IMG/VR virus record: IMGVR_UViG_3300043567_000286
Span: 1 to 33,677 of that record
Source of the DNA: a virus
Direction: 5' to 3' (one strand)
DNA: 33,677 nt
Within the stretch, counting starts at the first letter, position 1. Every line of letters begins with the position of its first letter. The translations under genes and the position numbers were made by a program. The notes below the pieces were generated by a model, which saw only the letters and a program-made list of their open reading frames with translations, was not told the DNA's origin and made no database searches. Positions 4,358 through 27,367 of the stretch are shown one piece after another.

Positions 4358-7279
4358 CTAATATCCTTTAGCTAAATAGTCAAAGGTTTTACTTACTCCA
4401 GTTCCACTACTATTTTTAAAAGCTAAGTCAAAACCATTTATAGTTTTGTTACTTAATAAAAAGAAATCGCCAGTAGCTAAACCTTGTGCAGTAATTCCAA
4501 CAGCATAACTAGCAGAATAAAATGGATTTGTAAATACAACATTATAGGTACTAATTCCACTTACTAAATCATTTCCACTAAATATTCTATCTGGCATATC
4601 AATACTTACTGATAAAGCACTAATGACTGGAGTAGATGATAAATCAAATGATGTTAATACAAGTCGGAACTTATAAAATCTACTTGTATAGTCCCCAACG
4701 ACAAAGTTCCTAAATGAAGTGTATGTGATATTGTCATTAGATAAAGCAATCTCTAAATGAGCATTACAATTTGCAGGAGTGTCTCCATCAAAGTTAGATT
4801 GTGCATCATCAAAATCTCCAGTTTCAGAATCAAATAAATCATCTAAGTTATCTGAAGTTTGTGTAATAGAAGCAGTTACTCTTGAAGTATAAACTCCACC
4901 TATATCAATAGGACTTGAAAACAAATAAAATCCTTGTGCAAATAAATCAGAAGTTGTAACACCAGAATCAAAAAATGTTGTTGCAGAATCAAAATTACCT
5001 AATGCAGAATCAAAAAGTTCTGATGAATCTAATCTTAATGTATTATCAACAATAGTTAAATTACTGTCTAATCCATCATCAAAATCTCCAGTTTTATTGT
5101 CAAAATCTCCTTCACCATTATCAAACGCATCTAATCCTATAAATGTAGGTGATTCAGTTTGTGTTGCAACAGCATTAAAGTTTCCTATTGCAATAATGTT
5201 AGTTGCTATGATTGTTTCATTAGAAGATAAGTTACCATTTTTATCTACTGCTTTAATTAAATAAGAACCTACTCTTGCTGGAACTGTAACTGAAGTAGCT
5301 GGTCTTGCAACTTTTTCAACTAAAGAAACTGAGTTACCCCAAGATGCACCACTTGTTTGAGTAGAAAATCTAATTTGATAATAAGCTAAATCTAAATCAC
5401 TAATTTGTGTCCAAGATAAATGTGCATCTCCACCAATTATGTTACAAGCAAAATCTTCAACATCTGCTGGTGGTGCTATTCCACCAATAATAGTTCTTGT
5501 GGCAGAAGTATAAGTTGATTGTACTCCTAATGTGTTAAATGCTTTTACTCTTACATTATAAATTAATCCATCTACTACATTTAATATCCTATGAAATAAT
5601 CCTTTGCCTTGACCAGCAATAAGATAATCGGTTGCTGTACTTAATTTATATTCTACTTGGTAATAATCTACGAATGAATCTAGTGAGGCACCAATGGTTA
5701 CATCAAGAGCAGTAATTACGACACCATCTGAGTATTCAATTAATTGATCGTTAAGTGTTACTGAAACTGGTGCAGAAACATTGTTAGGATTTGGAAGTGT
5801 TGTATCAGCAATAGTTGGTGCTTCTGCTTTAGAAGTCCAAGTGTAGAAATTATCTTGATGCTCTATAAGTTTTAATGAAACTGTTGAATCTGTATTTATA
5901 CTTAATCCATAAACTCTAAATGGTTTAGCACTAAATCCACCAGTAGAATAAGTTAAATCAACTATATCACCTATTGTTAAATTTAATGCTTCTGAGGTTA
6001 CCATAACTTCAACAGCCAAAGCATTTCTTGATCTTCTTAATATAATTTCACAAAGTTCTTCAGCTTGATATGGATTAGTAATTCCTTGAAATGTAAAATT
6101 ACCTTCTAATTGAGTTCCATTATCTTCGGCTAGTAAAGTTGCATATTGATCTCCTACTGATAAGCCAGAATCATCAGCAGGTGGATATGTAATTGTATCT
6201 TCTTGCCATTCTTTATCAGGATTTACAAAAGTTCCTATAACACGATTGTATTTAGTATTTTTCTTTTCACCAAATATTTTAATTCCACCAATTATATTAT
6301 CTGCATTTAAACTTAATTCTGATGTTCCAGTATTTTCAATAATTAAAAAGTATTTACCCTGTGTGTAGGTAAATATTGCTCTCATTGGATTTAATAATTC
6401 TCTTACATTGTCTATTACTTTTTGTTCTGTATCTATAACTAGATTTGTTTCAAATAAATCTATATCTGACGGTGCTGAAGTATATGGAGTAACTTGTGTT
6501 TCACAAATATTTGCACTTGTTTTAAAAGAATCATAATTAGTTTCAAATGATGAATTTGGCAAACCTTTTCCATATCTAGTATTTCTTAAATAATCTAAAA
6601 GACATAAAGCTGAATTGGGTGAATATGTCCAAGTTGATGCAGTATCTTGTCTATGTGAACCAGAACCACCCTTTGTAGAATCTAATCTAGGATCATAAAT
6701 TTTTTTACCTTTGAGAACTACTTTAACTTCTGGTAGTGAACTAAATGCATCTTGATTCCAAGTAAATTTAAAAGCTAAATAAGCAACACCTGATAATTTA
6801 TGATTGCTTCCCCAGTTAGTAGATTCATCTAGTATTGATGAAACTGATTGATTGTCTAATCCATAAAATGCCTGAACTGATATTAAACTTCCATCTTTAT
6901 AAAAATTAGTATCTGAACTATTTACTGTTCGTACTGTTCCATCAGTTAATGCACCTGACCAAACTACCAGTTTATCATTAACATAAATTTCATCTACTGA
7001 TTCAATTCCATTACCACCACCTTCGCAAAGAACTCCTGCCATATAAAGATATTGATTATCTGAACCAGAAGATTCAACAAATACTCTAGCGATACCAACT
7101 TGCCTTCTTCCATAAACTATTGGAATGGCACTATTGTTAGACGCCTTATTAACTAAAATTCCTTGTGCTGTTTCTTGTTGTTGCACATTTCTCTTTGGTG
7201 GATCAGGTTTTAAAACCCAAGAGATTGCTGTTGTTACTACAAGTTGAACTACAAATGCTGTTACTGGATCAAAGCCCAT
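4358..7279 (-). CDS. Tail-tip host-specificity protein, lambda J-like
   Basis: A 973-residue protein, the largest in the window. The N-terminus (MGFDPVTAFVVQLVVTTAIS, then WVLKPDPP, then SAIPIVYGRRQVG) matches the start of J/GTA-type tail hub proteins. A central hub region follows (GKGLPNSSFETNYDSF) and then fibronectin-III-like segments near 500-720 (YYQVEYKLST, YNVRVKAFNTLG, YYQIRFSTQTSG). The C-terminal third carries three clusters of FD-x(4-6)-FD repeats. It overlaps the upstream HlyC-like gene by 11 nt. It probably forms the central tail tip and contacts the cell. The length fits J-type proteins, usually around 1,000 residues. Confidence 0.85.
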   Translation of the reverse strand: MGFDPVTAFVVQLVVTTAISWVLKPDPPKRNVQQQETAQGILVNKASNNSAIPIVYGRRQVGIARVFVESSGSDNQYLYMAGVLCEGGGNGIESVDEIYVNDKLVVWSGALTDGTVRTVNSSDTNFYKDGSLISVQAFYGLDNQSVSSILDESTNWGSNHKLSGVAYLAFKFTWNQDAFSSLPEVKVVLKGKKIYDPRLDSTKGGSGSHRQDTASTWTYSPNSALCLLDYLRNTRYGKGLPNSSFETNYDSFKTSANICETQVTPYTSAPSDIDLFETNLVIDTEQKVIDNVRELLNPMRAIFTYTQGKYFLIIENTGTSELSLNADNIIGGIKIFGEKKNTKYNRVIGTFVNPDKEWQEDTITYPPADDSGLSVGDQYATLLAEDNGTQLEGNFTFQGITNPYQAEELCEIILRRSRNALAVEVMVTSEALNLTIGDIVDLTYSTGGFSAKPFRVYGLSINTDSTVSLKLIEHQDNFYTWTSKAEAPTIADTTLPNPNNVSAPVSVTLNDQLIEYSDGVVITALDVTIGASLDSFVDYYQVEYKLSTATDYLIAGQGKGLFHRILNVVDGLIYNVRVKAFNTLGVQSTYTSATRTIIGGIAPPADVEDFACNIIGGDAHLSWTQISDLDLAYYQIRFSTQTSGASWGNSVSLVEKVARPATSVTVPARVGSYLIKAVDKNGNLSSNETIIATNIIAIGNFNAVATQTESPTFIGLDAFDNGEGDFDNKTGDFDDGLDSNLTIVDNTLRLDSSELFDSALGNFDSATTFFDSGVTTSDLFAQGFYLFSSPIDIGGVYTSRVTASITQTSDNLDDLFDSETGDFDDAQSNFDGDTPANCNAHLEIALSNDNITYTSFRNFVVGDYTSRFYKFRLVLTSFDLSSTPVISALSVSIDMPDRIFSGNDLVSGISTYNVVFTNPFYSASYAVGITAQGLATGDFFLLSNKTINGFDLAFKNSSGTGVSKTFDYLAKGY
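4781..5135 (-). repeat. FD-repeat clusters in the tail-tip protein gene
   Basis: Three coding clusters have the form FD-xxx-G-x-FD-xxxxx-FD: one around 5071-5135 (FDNGEGDFDNKTGDFDDG), one around 4961-5021 (LFDSALGNFDSATTFFDSG) and one around 4781-4840 (LFDSETGDFDDAQSNFDGD). They recur at the protein level with only partial DNA identity. They may be Asp-rich metal-binding or beta-solenoid turns; this is inference. Confidence 0.6.
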
Positions 7280-7700
7280 TATGAAACTCCCTTTTAAATT
7301 TCATAGATCTTCTATAAATAGTTGAATCATCAGCTATTCTTAACCATTTCAAAGGTTGATCTACCTCTAATACATTTCTAAAATATTCTTTAGTCCATTT
7401 CATAATTTCTCTTAAATGACTTTTAGCAACTGTTTCAATATGCCAAATATTATTTCCTGATTTCCATTCATTAGCTTTTAATCTACCAGTTGTTGTAAAT
7501 CTTTTTTCTACTTCATCACTTAAATATGCCCAATTAGTAAATCCAACAACTTCTCCATTAACTTGGTGAATTTGATACTGTTCTAAATTAAAAGAAGGTA
7601 ATATCATATTTATTAAATCTTCGTATTTCATTTTATCGTATCGTGGGAACTGTCTGTATAAATGTATAATTTTGTAAAGATCATTTATGCCTTTCCCCAT
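7269..7700 (-). CDS. HlyC-like toxin-activating lysine-acyltransferase family protein in tail-tip cassette
   Basis: A 143-residue protein. The stretch from about 33 to 90 matches the RTX toxin-activating acyltransferase family (HlyC/ApxC): ILPSFNLEQYQIHQVNGE, then VVGFTNWAYLSDEVEKR, then EWKSGNNIWHIE. HlyC uses acyl-ACP to acylate lysines of RTX toxins. When aligned by eye with no gaps between conserved prolines, the HlyC catalytic His23 falls on Tyr21, and catalytic Asp92 falls on Glu89. Activity may therefore be altered or lost. The gene lies between the DUF2163-like tail-tip gene (16-nt overlap) and the J-like gene (11-nt overlap), where lambda-like phages and GTA place an NlpC/P60 tail peptidase. 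It may act on a tail protein; this is inference. Confidence 0.75.
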   Translation of the reverse strand: MGKGINDLYKIIHLYRQFPRYDKMKYEDLINMILPSFNLEQYQIHQVNGEVVGFTNWAYLSDEVEKRFTTTGRLKANEWKSGNNIWHIETVAKSHLREIMKWTKEYFRNVLEVDQPLKWLRIADDSTIYRRSMKFKREFHNGL

Positions 7701-21495: not shown

Positions 21496-22371
21496 TTATA
21501 ACTTATTTATTAAATCTCTAATTTCTTTAGACTTAATTTCACTTCCAACTTGAGTTAATTTCATTCCATAATTGTTTGGTTTCATATTTTTCCAATCAAT
21601 ATCATCTCTACGAATTAATTGCGTATCAAATTTTTTCCATTGATGAGCCACAATATGTTGTGGTCTTTTAAATCTTCTGTCGGTTTTTACTACTCTTGGC
21701 CACATTCGTTCTAAAGCCCTTGCCATTTTTAATCTACCATCGCCTTTATAAAGTTCATCAGCATTTCCACCTTTCATTGTCATTGTTGCCATTTTATCAA
21801 TTAAAAATACATTTATTAAAACAGTACAAAGTCCACCAGATAAAACCTGCAAACATAAATCAGTATCTTCATTGTATCTGCCACGCCATCTGTAAGGCAA
21901 TTTGTTGTCTATGAGTAAGGTAGAATAAACATGATTGTTTAAATAAAATGGTGGAATAACATTAATTGCAAAACAAGTATAATTTAGTCCTGATATTCCT
22001 ATATTAGTATATCTGTCAGTAAAGTCCTCAGTAACTATAAATGCTTTATTAGAATTACATTTTAATCTTTTGCCATGATGTAATCTTCTAACGCATCTAA
22101 TATTATCATCTAATATCCAATGTCTTTTATGTCCCTCTTTAATAGAATGTTCCCAGCACCAATTTCTAGCAGGAATGGAACCTGATCCTAAATTTTGAAA
22201 TGGTAATGTTAAAACTCTATGTTCTCCGAACCTTGCCAAATATTCAATTTTTTCTTGTGGTTCCACAACAAGTTTAAAATCAACTTTATCTTCAACTAAA
22301 AATTTTGCTGTTAAACAATTTTCATATCTACCCTTAGAAATAACATAAATAGGGTATCTAGGTTTATTCAT
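21496..22371 (-). CDS. TET-associated-type glycosyltransferase (TAGT), probable DNA-base modification
   Basis: A 291-residue protein. The N-terminus PRYPIYVISKGRYENCLTAK, then FGEHRVLTLPFQNLGSGSIP, then ARNWCWEHSIKEGHKRHWIL-DDNI leads to GRYNEDTDLCLQVLSGGLCT and MKGGNADELYKGDGRLKMAR. These are the motifs of TET-associated glycosyltransferases. That phage family adds sugars to hydroxymethylated pyrimidines made by TET/JBP oxygenases. The DD in ILDDN and the NEDTD block probably bind the sugar nucleotide and metal. No TET, JBP, thymidylate synthase or methylase homologue is visible here. The gene overlaps the ParB-like gene by 8 nt, so the two are made together. Confidence 0.8.
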   Translation of the reverse strand: MNKPRYPIYVISKGRYENCLTAKFLVEDKVDFKLVVEPQEKIEYLARFGEHRVLTLPFQNLGSGSIPARNWCWEHSIKEGHKRHWILDDNIRCVRRLHHGKRLKCNSNKAFIVTEDFTDRYTNIGISGLNYTCFAINVIPPFYLNNHVYSTLLIDNKLPYRWRGRYNEDTDLCLQVLSGGLCTVLINVFLIDKMATMTMKGGNADELYKGDGRLKMARALERMWPRVVKTDRRFKRPQHIVAHQWKKFDTQLIRRDDIDWKNMKPNNYGMKLTQVGSEIKSKEIRDLINKL

Positions 22372-23449
22372 ACTTAACTGATTTTAAATCTTCTTTTTCT
22401 TTTAGTGGCCACCAAACACTCCAAGTTCTACCTTTTTCTTTGCCTTGTGGAATTTTAGCCATATTACAAAATTCGTTTCTATCTTGTTCTGTTTTAAAAA
22501 TTATTGTGTATTTAATATAATGGTCTTTAGGAACATAATCTGGCATACCAACCCATTCGGCTGCCTCATTAATATCATTAATCTCGTGCTGTGGTCTAGT
22601 TACCATAACTAAATTAGCTAACATCATTTTGTCATAACCAGTGCCAGATAAACCATCTTTATCTTTAACCTCTTTTAATAGTTCGCTTAACTTACGATCA
22701 TCAATTTCTGCAAGTTTTCCTATTTCGTTATTGCCAGTTAAAATCTTTAATGCTTGTGGACTATCAGATTCAATATCTAGTTTAATAACTGGAACTTCTT
22801 TTAATTTAAGTTTGTGACAAGCAGATACAACTCCATGCCCATCTAAAATAGTATAATCTTTTGCAACAACTACATTTCTGTAAAAACCATGTTGTTTAAT
22901 AGAATTGGCTAAATGTTCTAATTGATCGTCTAAATGGACTTTATAATGTTTAGGGTGTGGTTTTAAATCAATTAATTGTACTGGTTCTGCTTTTGTTCCA
23001 AGAAAAGAATCAACGATTGGATCTGAGTCTCTTAATATATTATCTAATTCTTTTTCATCAAACCCAAAGTTTAGTAATTCAGAATTATAATCTTTTAAAT
23101 CATCTATTTCTATGTTTAATAAATCTTTGTCCCACTCATTATCTTCATTTAATCTATTATCTACAATCCTATATGCTTTAGCTTGTTGTTCTGTAAGATC
23201 TGCAATTAATACTGGAACTTTTTCTAATCCTAATTGCTTACTAGCTTGAAAGCGAGTGTGTCCGACAATTATAATATTATTTTTATCTACTACAATAGGT
23301 TGTTGAAAGCCAAACTCTGCAATTGACTTGGCAACTTTATCAACATTTTTAATTTTTCTAGGATTATTGTTATAAGGTTTTATCTCATTTATTGATAAAT
23401 ATTGAATCTTTGTATTTTGTATTAATTGGTTAAGGTTTTCTTTTTTCAT
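22364..23449 (-). CDS. Double ParB-like domain protein
   Basis: A 361-residue protein with two ParB/Srx-like domains. The first (about 15-110) has YLSINEIKPYNNNPRKIKN, GFQQPIVVDKNNIIIVGHTR, then FQASKQLG and KAYRIVDNRLNE. The second (about 135-240) has LIDLKPHPKHYKVHL, GFYRNVVVAKDYTILDGHGV and CHKLKLKEVPVIKLD. A C-terminal part (YIKYTIIFKTEQDRNEFCNM) follows. In the first domain GHTR matches the conserved G-x-x-R of ParB folds; the second has GHGV instead, so it may be altered. Phage ParB-like proteins accompany base-modification enzymes and may bind DNA, NTPs or act as nucleases. Confidence 0.75.
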   Translation of the reverse strand: MKKENLNQLIQNTKIQYLSINEIKPYNNNPRKIKNVDKVAKSIAEFGFQQPIVVDKNNIIIVGHTRFQASKQLGLEKVPVLIADLTEQQAKAYRIVDNRLNEDNEWDKDLLNIEIDDLKDYNSELLNFGFDEKELDNILRDSDPIVDSFLGTKAEPVQLIDLKPHPKHYKVHLDDQLEHLANSIKQHGFYRNVVVAKDYTILDGHGVVSACHKLKLKEVPVIKLDIESDSPQALKILTGNNEIGKLAEIDDRKLSELLKEVKDKDGLSGTGYDKMMLANLVMVTRPQHEINDINEAAEWVGMPDYVPKDHYIKYTIIFKTEQDRNEFCNMAKIPQGKEKGRTWSVWWPLKEKEDLKSVKYE

Positions 23450-23597
23450 CTGCTTCCTTTAGTTTCATTAACACATATTGCTCTAAAGCATCTGAACTTA
23501 AATTAGTTCTTGCCATTTGAAATTCGTCTTTGGGTTTTTTATCTTTTAATGCTTGGTAAAGTTTTTTAAGTTTAGGTTTAACAATATCAACTTTCAT
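23430..23597 (-). CDS. Small helical protein before ParB-like gene
   Basis: A 55-residue peptide starting MKVDIVKPKLKKLYQALKDK. It continues with KPKDEFQMARTNLSSDALEQ and ends YVLMKLKEADEKRKP. It is helical, basic and overlaps the ParB-like start by 20 nt and the DnaA-like gene by 11 nt. This overlap and the purine-rich leader support it. No family is recognised; it may be a partner of the ParB-like protein. Confidence 0.5.
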   Translation of the reverse strand: MKVDIVKPKLKKLYQALKDKKPKDEFQMARTNLSSDALEQYVLMKLKEADEKRKP

Positions 23598-26730: not shown

Positions 26731-26913
26731 ATGAAAGTAAAGGTTAGTCGTGATATTCTGGTTAGTTGTGCTGATTTAATAAAAAACTATTTTTTGGTGA
26801 TGGAATTTTCTGGATCTAAAATAAGTAGTTATGACAAAGCGATTTACAATGCTTTAAAAGATATTATAAATAACAATAATAAGGGAAAAAAAAATGAACA
26901 TATTTCATCTTGA
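26731..26913 (+). CDS. Early small protein (60 aa)
   Basis: A 60-residue protein (MKVKVSRDILVSCADLIKNY) with a Lys/Asn-rich C-terminus (NNNNKGKKNEHISS). It starts 2 nt after membrane peptide B and its 3' end overlaps the next gene by 20 nt. A mixed helical fold is likely. No family is recognised. Confidence 0.45.
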   Translation: MKVKVSRDILVSCADLIKNYFLVMEFSGSKISSYDKAIYNALKDIINNNNKGKKNEHISS

Positions 26914-27367
26914 TAAAAACCCAGAAATTTGTGCAAGTTATCATTGTGATAAACATGTTGTTAAAATGATTTTAGAAACTGCACAAATGTTATGTACTGC
27001 CTACCAAAGACATTTTGGTACTAATGAAAAACTTTATAAACCAGCATATCCTAAACACCCTATGACTTTGTGGGTAGGCAATTCAAAAGAAAACTTTTTA
27101 TGGTCCTTAGATTTATTAAAATATCTACTTGACCAATATACACTTAGATATAAAAAAATTCATTCATCAGATCGTATTTATAAACTATTAATATCTTTAG
27201 ATATTACTGATTTTGTTTCTATTGGATTTACTAATCCCCCATTATGTATGCCAGATATTTATAAATCTAATGATTATGTTTCATCTTATAAGAAATATTA
27301 TATAAATGAGAAAAAGCGATTCGCAAAATATACACTTGTTGAAACGCCAAATTTTATGATGGTATGA
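26894..27367 (+). CDS. Conserved viral protein of unknown function, His/Cys/Lys-rich core
   Basis: A 157-residue protein that starts MNIFHLDKNPEICASYHCDK, then HVVKMILETAQMLCTAYQRH. It has YKPAYPKHPMTLWVGNSKEN and a C-terminal KKRFAKYTLVETPNF. I recognise MNIFxLDxxPxxCAxYHCDKHVVKMILE as a sequence that recurs in phages and large viruses without a firm function. The conserved His, Cys, Asp and Lys suggest an enzyme, perhaps DNA repair-like; this is weak. It has an AAGGGAAAAA site and an ATGA overlap with the next gene. Confidence 0.6.
   Translation: MNIFHLDKNPEICASYHCDKHVVKMILETAQMLCTAYQRHFGTNEKLYKPAYPKHPMTLWVGNSKENFLWSLDLLKYLLDQYTLRYKKIHSSDRIYKLLISLDITDFVSIGFTNPPLCMPDIYKSNDYVSSYKKYYINEKKRFAKYTLVETPNFMMV

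What the first reader, a model, noticed from the sequence alone, without database searches (positions are those of the whole stretch)
21496..23449. TET-associated-type glycosyltransferase fused in one operon with a double ParB protein but no TET
The 291-residue enzyme has the TAGT motifs, which in other phages act on bases made by TET/JBP oxygenases. Here it overlaps a two-domain ParB-like gene by 8 nt, and no oxygenase, thymidylate synthase or methylase is seen. The modified base could come from another route, from a host enzyme, or from genes outside the window; or the enzyme could glycosylate something other than DNA. A ParB-guided modification system is an attractive inference.
Basis: partly seen in the sequence, partly recalled or inferred. 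Interest (0 to 1): 0.75.

Follow-up and report, generated by a model that had tools for sequence, protein, structure and literature searches.

The report
ParB-coupled phage DNA glycosyltransferase pair
This small phage carries a sugar-transferring enzyme that, in over a hundred related virus fragments, always sits directly behind a DNA-binding ParB-like partner, yet these viruses lack every known enzyme for preparing DNA bases to receive a sugar, so they may glycosylate DNA by an unknown route.

Summary
21496-22371(-) is a full-length TAGT glycosyltransferase (PF20691, E 3e-47, GT-A fold), overlapping by 8 nt a ParB-like gene (22364-23449). It is not a local accident. Among 84 TAGT loci of this branch, all 84 have this partner directly upstream; among 70 loci found through the partner, all 70 have TAGT downstream. 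The constant part of the partner is not the 'double ParB' (the first ParB domain is optional) but one ParB domain plus a ~70-aa C-terminal domain (CTD) in neither Pfam nor PHROGs. That CTD also occurs alone before TAGT and fused to the TAGT N-terminus in Aeromonas, Vibrio, Pectobacterium and Tenacibaculum phages; all 16 of its hits in 50,697 phage records are at TAGT. About 70 ParB-TAGT records hold no TET/JBP over cut-off and no thymidylate-synthase-family gene. About a third have an adjacent UDP-glucuronate decarboxylase (UDP-xylose synthase). Best reading: ParB-CTD loads TAGT on DNA, and it transfers a UDP-sugar (a pentose in some lineages). Acceptor base and route are unknown. Persisting palindrome avoidance argues against blanket T4-like protection. 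New variant of a known kind (ParB-coupled DNA-modifying enzymes); I found no paper on this pair.

The parts
21496..22371 (-). TAGT glycosyltransferase, GT-A fold, 291 aa
   Evidence: PF20691 161.5 bits, full length; AlphaFold2 pLDDT 87.7; VIA Z 15.1 to GalNAc-T2; about 50 invariant columns in 31 homologues
22105..22110 (-). D88-D89 of the 'W-x-L/M-D-D-N/D' motif (DxD-like metal/UDP-sugar site, assigned by analogy)
   Evidence: invariant in ParB-, CTD- and TET-associated TAGTs
21859..21870 (-). E168-D169-T-D171 motif
   Evidence: E168, D169 and D171 invariant
22364..23449 (-). ParB-like partner, 361 aa: ParB domain 1 (optional), ParB domain 2 (constant), CTD
   Evidence: PF02195 two stretches; conserved directly upstream of TAGT in 84/84 loci and followed by TAGT in 70/70
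23156..23410 (-). optional first ParB domain (residues 14-98), keeps the 'GHTR' arginine
22589..22993 (-). constant ParB domain (about residues 153-287), 'GHGV' in place of the arginine-bearing box
   Evidence: Foldseek to ParB/Noc/sulfiredoxin
22367..22588 (-). CTD, TAGT-partner domain (about residues 288-361), 'W-x-G-M-P ... W-P' pattern
   Evidence: occurs alone (L256), on another N-terminal part (L257) and fused to TAGT in isolate phages
22364..22371 (-). 8-nt overlap of the ParB stop and TAGT start
   Evidence: overlap or near-zero spacing is the rule in the family
23430..23597 (-). 55-aa ORF, probable remnant (C-terminal tail) of the 191-aa wHTH replication-like protein that fills this slot in sister phages
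   Evidence: alignment score 63 against a shuffle maximum of 54

Best explanation
The two genes encode one phage DNA-glycosylation device. The ParB domain(s) bind phage DNA, the C-terminal domain (CTD) docks the TAGT glycosyltransferase, and TAGT transfers a sugar from a UDP-sugar to a base (or to a hydroxyl on a base) at ParB-chosen or ParB-opened places. In lineages with an adjacent UDP-glucuronate decarboxylase the donor is probably UDP-xylose; the window lacks that gene and would use a host UDP-sugar. Shown: the genes, domains, obligate pairing, CTD-TAGT fusion, predicted GT-A fold with conserved acidic motifs, and lack of known acceptor-making genes. Inferred: DNA as substrate, ParB loading or targeting, CTD docking, pentose donor. 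Unknown: the acceptor base and how it obtains a nucleophile.
For: TAGT full-length and motif-complete; GT-A fold. Partner directly upstream in 84/84 TAGT loci of this branch, usually within a few tens of nt; reciprocally 70/70. Pair present or absent as a unit in one genomic slot: 16 loci with both, 9 with neither, 0 mixed (some loci are the same contig). CTD as part of a separate partner, as a stand-alone ORF (L256), on a non-ParB N-terminal part (L257), and fused to TAGT in isolate phages: fusion and adjacency imply physical association. TAGT of T6 adds a sugar to glucosylated DNA cytosine (PMC13216743). ParB proteins accompany other DNA-base modifiers: DpdB with DpdA (PMC6392294, PMC12839542), ParBc with CmoX and with DNA MTases (PMC12783734). 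Adjacent SDR/UXS cluster in 29 of 79 loci (SDR profile in 20/50 records; E 5e-126 to UXS1).
Against: No TET over cut-off, no thymidylate-synthase-family gene and (first 50 records) no C5-MTase to make an acceptor. The window still avoids TCGA (0 against 33), CCGG (0 against 7), ACGT (3 against 31) and GGCC (4 against 22), unexpected if all cytosines were protected. The constant ParB domain lacks the arginine of the canonical box, so NTP-driven loading is uncertain. No repeated parS-like site found.
Confidence: 0.6

Rival explanations
1. TAGT with ParB glycosylates a hydroxylated base made by an unrecognised phage enzyme or supplied by the host, i.e. classical hypermodification with a first step that we cannot see; ParB only adds sequence choice. 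(A narrower version of the best explanation, compatible with it.)
For: All known TAGT routes use a hydroxyl: TET in P12024L, TS superfamily in T4-like CTD-TAGT phages (7 of 10 records), 5-hydroxy-dCMP synthase for arabinosylation (PMC13390438).
Against: No candidate hydroxylase shared by the ParB-TAGT genomes was found in the neighbourhood clusters or among the listed families of the window's proteins; very different phages share only the pair.
Confidence: 0.3
2. The enzyme glycosylates a non-DNA target (virion protein, the ParB partner itself, or a host component) and ParB is regulatory.
For: No acceptor-base genes; restriction-site avoidance persists; the pair often sits just upstream of the terminase and head genes.
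Against: Relatives with the same CTD and TAGT lie in T4-like phages annotated as glucosylating HMC DNA; ParB is a DNA-binding family; other ParB partners act on DNA bases.
Confidence: 0.18
3. ParB replaces the lost wHTH replication-like protein of this slot as an origin binder, and TAGT is a passenger.
For: In sister phages the slot holds a 191-aa wHTH protein, of which the window seems to keep only the C-terminal tail.
Against: The ParB-TAGT pair is obligate in unrelated phages with other gene orders, so a replication swap cannot explain the pairing.
Confidence: 0.05
4. The pair modifies host or rival DNA (attack or self/non-self marking) at sites the phage itself avoids.
For: ACGT is strongly depleted in several ParB-TAGT phages of different GC, e.g. 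3/31 in the window, 2/64 in L036, 0/80 in L043.
Against: ACGT is not depleted in phages with about 90% identical TAGT (L009, L014, L015) and is depleted in some contigs without TAGT (L146, L236); ordinary host restriction explains it.
Confidence: 0.04

Closest known systems
T6/T2 beta-glucosyl-HMC-alpha-glucosyltransferase and CTD-fused TAGTs of Aeromonas phages Aeh1 and 65 (PF20691, phrog_842)
   Same: Same TAGT domain; the Aeromonas-type proteins carry the same partner domain, fused at the N-terminus
   Different: Aeh1, 65, POP12 and PTm1 are large phages with a TS-superfamily enzyme; here a small phage, the CTD is on a separate ParB protein, and no acceptor enzyme is seen
TET-TAGT-MTase cassette (Nonlabens phage P12024L)
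   Same: TAGT family enzyme in a small marine phage
   Different: about 30% identity, separated by very long branches; has TET and an MTase, no ParB or CTD
DpdA-DpdB (7-deazaguanine insertion with a ParB-like partner)
   Same: ParB-superfamily protein paired with a DNA-base-modifying enzyme in phages (PMC6392294, PMC12839542)
   Different: TGT-type transglycosylase and 7-deazaguanine chemistry, not a UDP-sugar GT-A enzyme
ParBc with CmoX (cytosine C5-carboxymethyltransferase) and ParB-MTase fusions (phrog_498)
   Same: ParB domain next to or fused with a phage DNA-modifying enzyme (PMC12783734)
   Different: SAM-dependent methyl or carboxymethyl transfer, not glycosyl transfer; no TAGT partner domain reported
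Shewanella phage Thanatos pentosyl-cytosine
   Same: Pentose (putatively xylose) modification with a UDP-xylose-making enzyme (PMC12838424)
   Different: T4-like phage with a TS-family candidate; different transferase; no ParB mentioned in the paper

Membership tests
PF20691 TAGT | profile match over the curated cut-off, full length | tested here: met
   161.5 bits against 27.5, positions 1-205/205
PF20691 TAGT | GT-A fold and conserved acidic motifs | tested here: met
TET-TAGT hypermodification cassette | TET/JBP oxygenase in the genome | tested here: not met
   0 in the window; none of 49 other TAGT records; one sub-cut-off fragment (15 bits) in G051; positive control P12024L rings
T-even-type glucosylated HMC system | TS-superfamily hydroxymethylase | tested here: not met
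   0 in the window and other ParB-TAGT records; present in T4-like CTD-TAGT phages
T-even-type glucosylated HMC system | glycosylated cytosine in virion DNA | not testable with these tools
   needs LC-MS
ParB superfamily (PF02195) | ParB_N domain over cut-off | tested here: met
   71.6 bits against 26.3; fold hits to ParB, Noc and sulfiredoxin
Canonical ParABS partition ParB | arginine-bearing nucleotide-binding box (GxRR) in the constant domain | tested here: not met
   'GHGV/I' in the 29 aligned members; only the optional domain 1 keeps the arginine
Canonical ParABS partition ParB | parS repeats | tested here: inconclusive
   no repeated parS-like site in the window; ParA was not sought specifically
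DpdAB | TGT-type DpdA | not tested
   no TGT family among the listed Pfam hits of the window's proteins; TGT was not searched for by name

The most novel reading that the evidence does not exclude
ParB-CTD-TAGT is a self-sufficient device that glycosylates an unmodified DNA base directly at ParB-selected sites (with a pentose in the UXS-bearing lineages), with no TET or thymidylate-synthase-type hydroxylation step: a third route to sugar-bearing DNA.
Probability: 0.25. Interest if true: 0.88.

Novelty: new variant of a known kind. Interest (0 to 1): 0.66.

Why it matters
A 2026 survey (PMC13216743) reports 288 of 753 phage genomes with solitary TAGTs of undefined function. This work gives one large branch an obligate partner, an interaction domain to test, a likely donor (UDP-xylose where UXS is adjacent) and a clear puzzle: no known source of the acceptor. 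If DNA is the target, it would be a ParB-coupled DNA glycosylation system, which would also help explain why ParB domains keep turning up beside phage DNA-modifying enzymes. It may offer a compact tool for enzymatic glycosylation of DNA.

Tried and rejected
ACGT as a ParB-TAGT target or self-avoided site: depletion does not follow TAGT, so rejected. Relief of palindrome avoidance as a sign of blanket modification: not seen. parS-like repeats: none convincing. Rfam: no RNA family. PHROGs and Pfam with the fused CTD, and PHROGs with the window's CTD: no family. PDB sequence search for TAGT: no relative. NCBIfam: no TAGT model hit; the SDR scored below every equivalog cut-off, and PDB sequence similarity to UXS1 settled it. 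One scan with the TET-type TAGT found only 3 viral loci. Literature search for ParB with TAGT found nothing relevant. The Pfam list shows only the 25 best of 70 families, so hits weaker than about E 2e-4 were not inspected.

Full report
What is there. The 291-aa ORF at 21496-22371(-) is a TAGT glycosyltransferase over its whole length (PHROG 842, beta-glucosyl-HMC-alpha-glucosyltransferase). Its predicted structure (mean pLDDT 87.7) is a GT-A fold (Foldseek: collagen hydroxylysine galactosyltransferase and heparosan synthase; VIA Z 15.1, rmsd 4.0, 223 aligned to GalNAc-T2). The upstream 361-aa ORF, 22364-23449(-), overlaps it by 8 nt and has two ParB_N stretches.

Completeness. The record is linear, but homologues of its two end genes are neighbours in the sister contig L222, about 0.9 kb apart with one HNH-like ORF between them. 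So the window is close to a full circular map, and the lack of TET/JBP and thymidylate-synthase-family genes (window proteins) is meaningful. This rests on a relative's gene order, not on the window's own ends.

The pair is obligate. A viral-contig scan found 344 TAGT relatives and kept 80. An HMM search of these and four MAG loci found the partner, or at least its C-terminal domain, directly upstream in 84 of 84; three have a larger gap of 650-857 nt, two of these (L077, L081) with one gene in between. Some are near-identical contigs or cut by a contig end; at 88% identity there are about 30 distinct partners. A scan with the partner alone gave 72 new loci (some on contigs already seen), of which 70 show TAGT downstream and 2 end too early. 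In the window's own phage group the slot holds either both genes (16 loci, some from the same contig) or neither (9), with none mixed.

The constant element of the partner. The alignment shows that the first ParB domain is optional. What stays is one ParB domain, with GHGV/I in place of the arginine-bearing box, and a CTD of about 70 aa with a W-x-G-M-P ... W-P pattern, without a Pfam or PHROG family. The CTD occurs alone before TAGT in L256 and on an unrelated N-terminal part in L257. It is also the N-terminal domain of TAGT itself in Aeromonas, Vibrio, Pectobacterium, Tenacibaculum and (weakly) Kuja phages (HMM scores 40.8 down to 13.6 bits; profile-profile probability 98.7, though I chose that template). 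A tblastn with the L256 CTD found 16 phage records, every one at the N-terminus of a TAGT or, for henriette (two records), directly before the TAGT reading frame. This is the strongest sign that the partner physically serves TAGT.

Relatives and acceptor supply. In a TAGT tree the window groups with ParB-type enzymes, the CTD-fused or CTD-alone enzymes form one supported clade of 12, and the TET-associated enzyme of P12024L and its relative L252 lie on very long branches. T4-like CTD-TAGT phages have a TS-superfamily enzyme (7 of 10 isolate records) and P12024L has TET. ParB-TAGT records have neither: no TET over cut-off in 49 plus 23 records (one 15-bit fragment in G051), no TS family in 50 plus 23, no C5-MTase in 50. 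Many of these records are fragments. Vibrio phages 1.076.O and 1.124.O, with CTD fusions, also have neither, although both are deposited as partial genomes.

Donor. An SDR gene sits beside the pair in 29 of 79 loci, mostly just before ParB; 20 of 50 records have the SDR profile. One of these proteins (L017) matches human UDP-glucuronate decarboxylase at 5e-126, so UDP-xylose is a likely donor there. L025 and L026 carry a more distant SDR. Other accessories: a second TAGT in tandem (L019-L022) or fused (L058), a class-I methyltransferase-like gene (L042, L077, L081), an N6/N4 methyltransferase (L071). The window has none of these.

Mechanism. I propose that ParB-CTD brings TAGT to DNA and TAGT transfers a UDP-sugar there. 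ParB-superfamily partners of other base-modifying enzymes (DpdB with DpdA, ParBc with CmoX, ParB-MTase fusions; PMC6392294, PMC12839542, PMC12783734) make this a known theme with a new enzyme. The acceptor is unknown: a hydroxyl from an unseen route, or the base itself.

Evidence that limits the claim. The window avoids TCGA, CCGG, CGCG, GCGC, ACGT, CATG and GGCC, as do sister phages without the pair for most of these. A genome fully protected by glycosylation would be expected to lose such avoidance, so modification, if present, may be partial, site-limited or recent. Everything about DNA as substrate remains inference.

Novelty. No paper in the held library links ParB with TAGT; most subscription papers are not held, and the comparative paper that I recall as defining TAGT could not be read. 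I therefore rate this as a new variant of a known kind.

Noticed in passing
window 1-33677: Extreme avoidance of palindromes: TCGA 0 against 33 expected, CCGG 0 against 7, ACGT 3 against 31, CATG 24 against 112, GGCC 4 against 22; sister phages avoid TCGA too (1 against 190).
   Followed up: partly
window 23430-23597: 55-aa ORF resembling the C-terminal tail of a 191-aa wHTH replication-like protein that occupies the ParB-TAGT slot in sister phages.
   Followed up: partly
window 7269-7700: A HlyC-type acyltransferase family match (PF02794, E 3.6e-19) among the window's proteins; I take it to be this tail-cluster ORF by its sequence, which was not tested singly.
   Followed up: no
L019-L022, L058: Two TAGTs in tandem or fused in one protein, perhaps adding two sugars in turn.
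   Followed up: no
L042, L077, L081: A class-I methyltransferase-like gene of about 270-285 aa beside or between ParB and TAGT, perhaps a sugar or base tailoring enzyme.
   Followed up: no
L129:15088-15705: 205-aa protein without a Pfam match in the same slot of a sister phage; its sequence recalls phage C5-methyltransferase-like proteins (from memory).
   Followed up: no
window 26894-27367: Weak match to pyrimidine dimer DNA glycosylase (PF03013, below cut-off) in the early region.
   Followed up: no
L256:1840-2718: A DNA methyltransferase-like gene shortly downstream of the solo-CTD TAGT in a MAG filed as Mycoplasmataceae.
   Followed up: no
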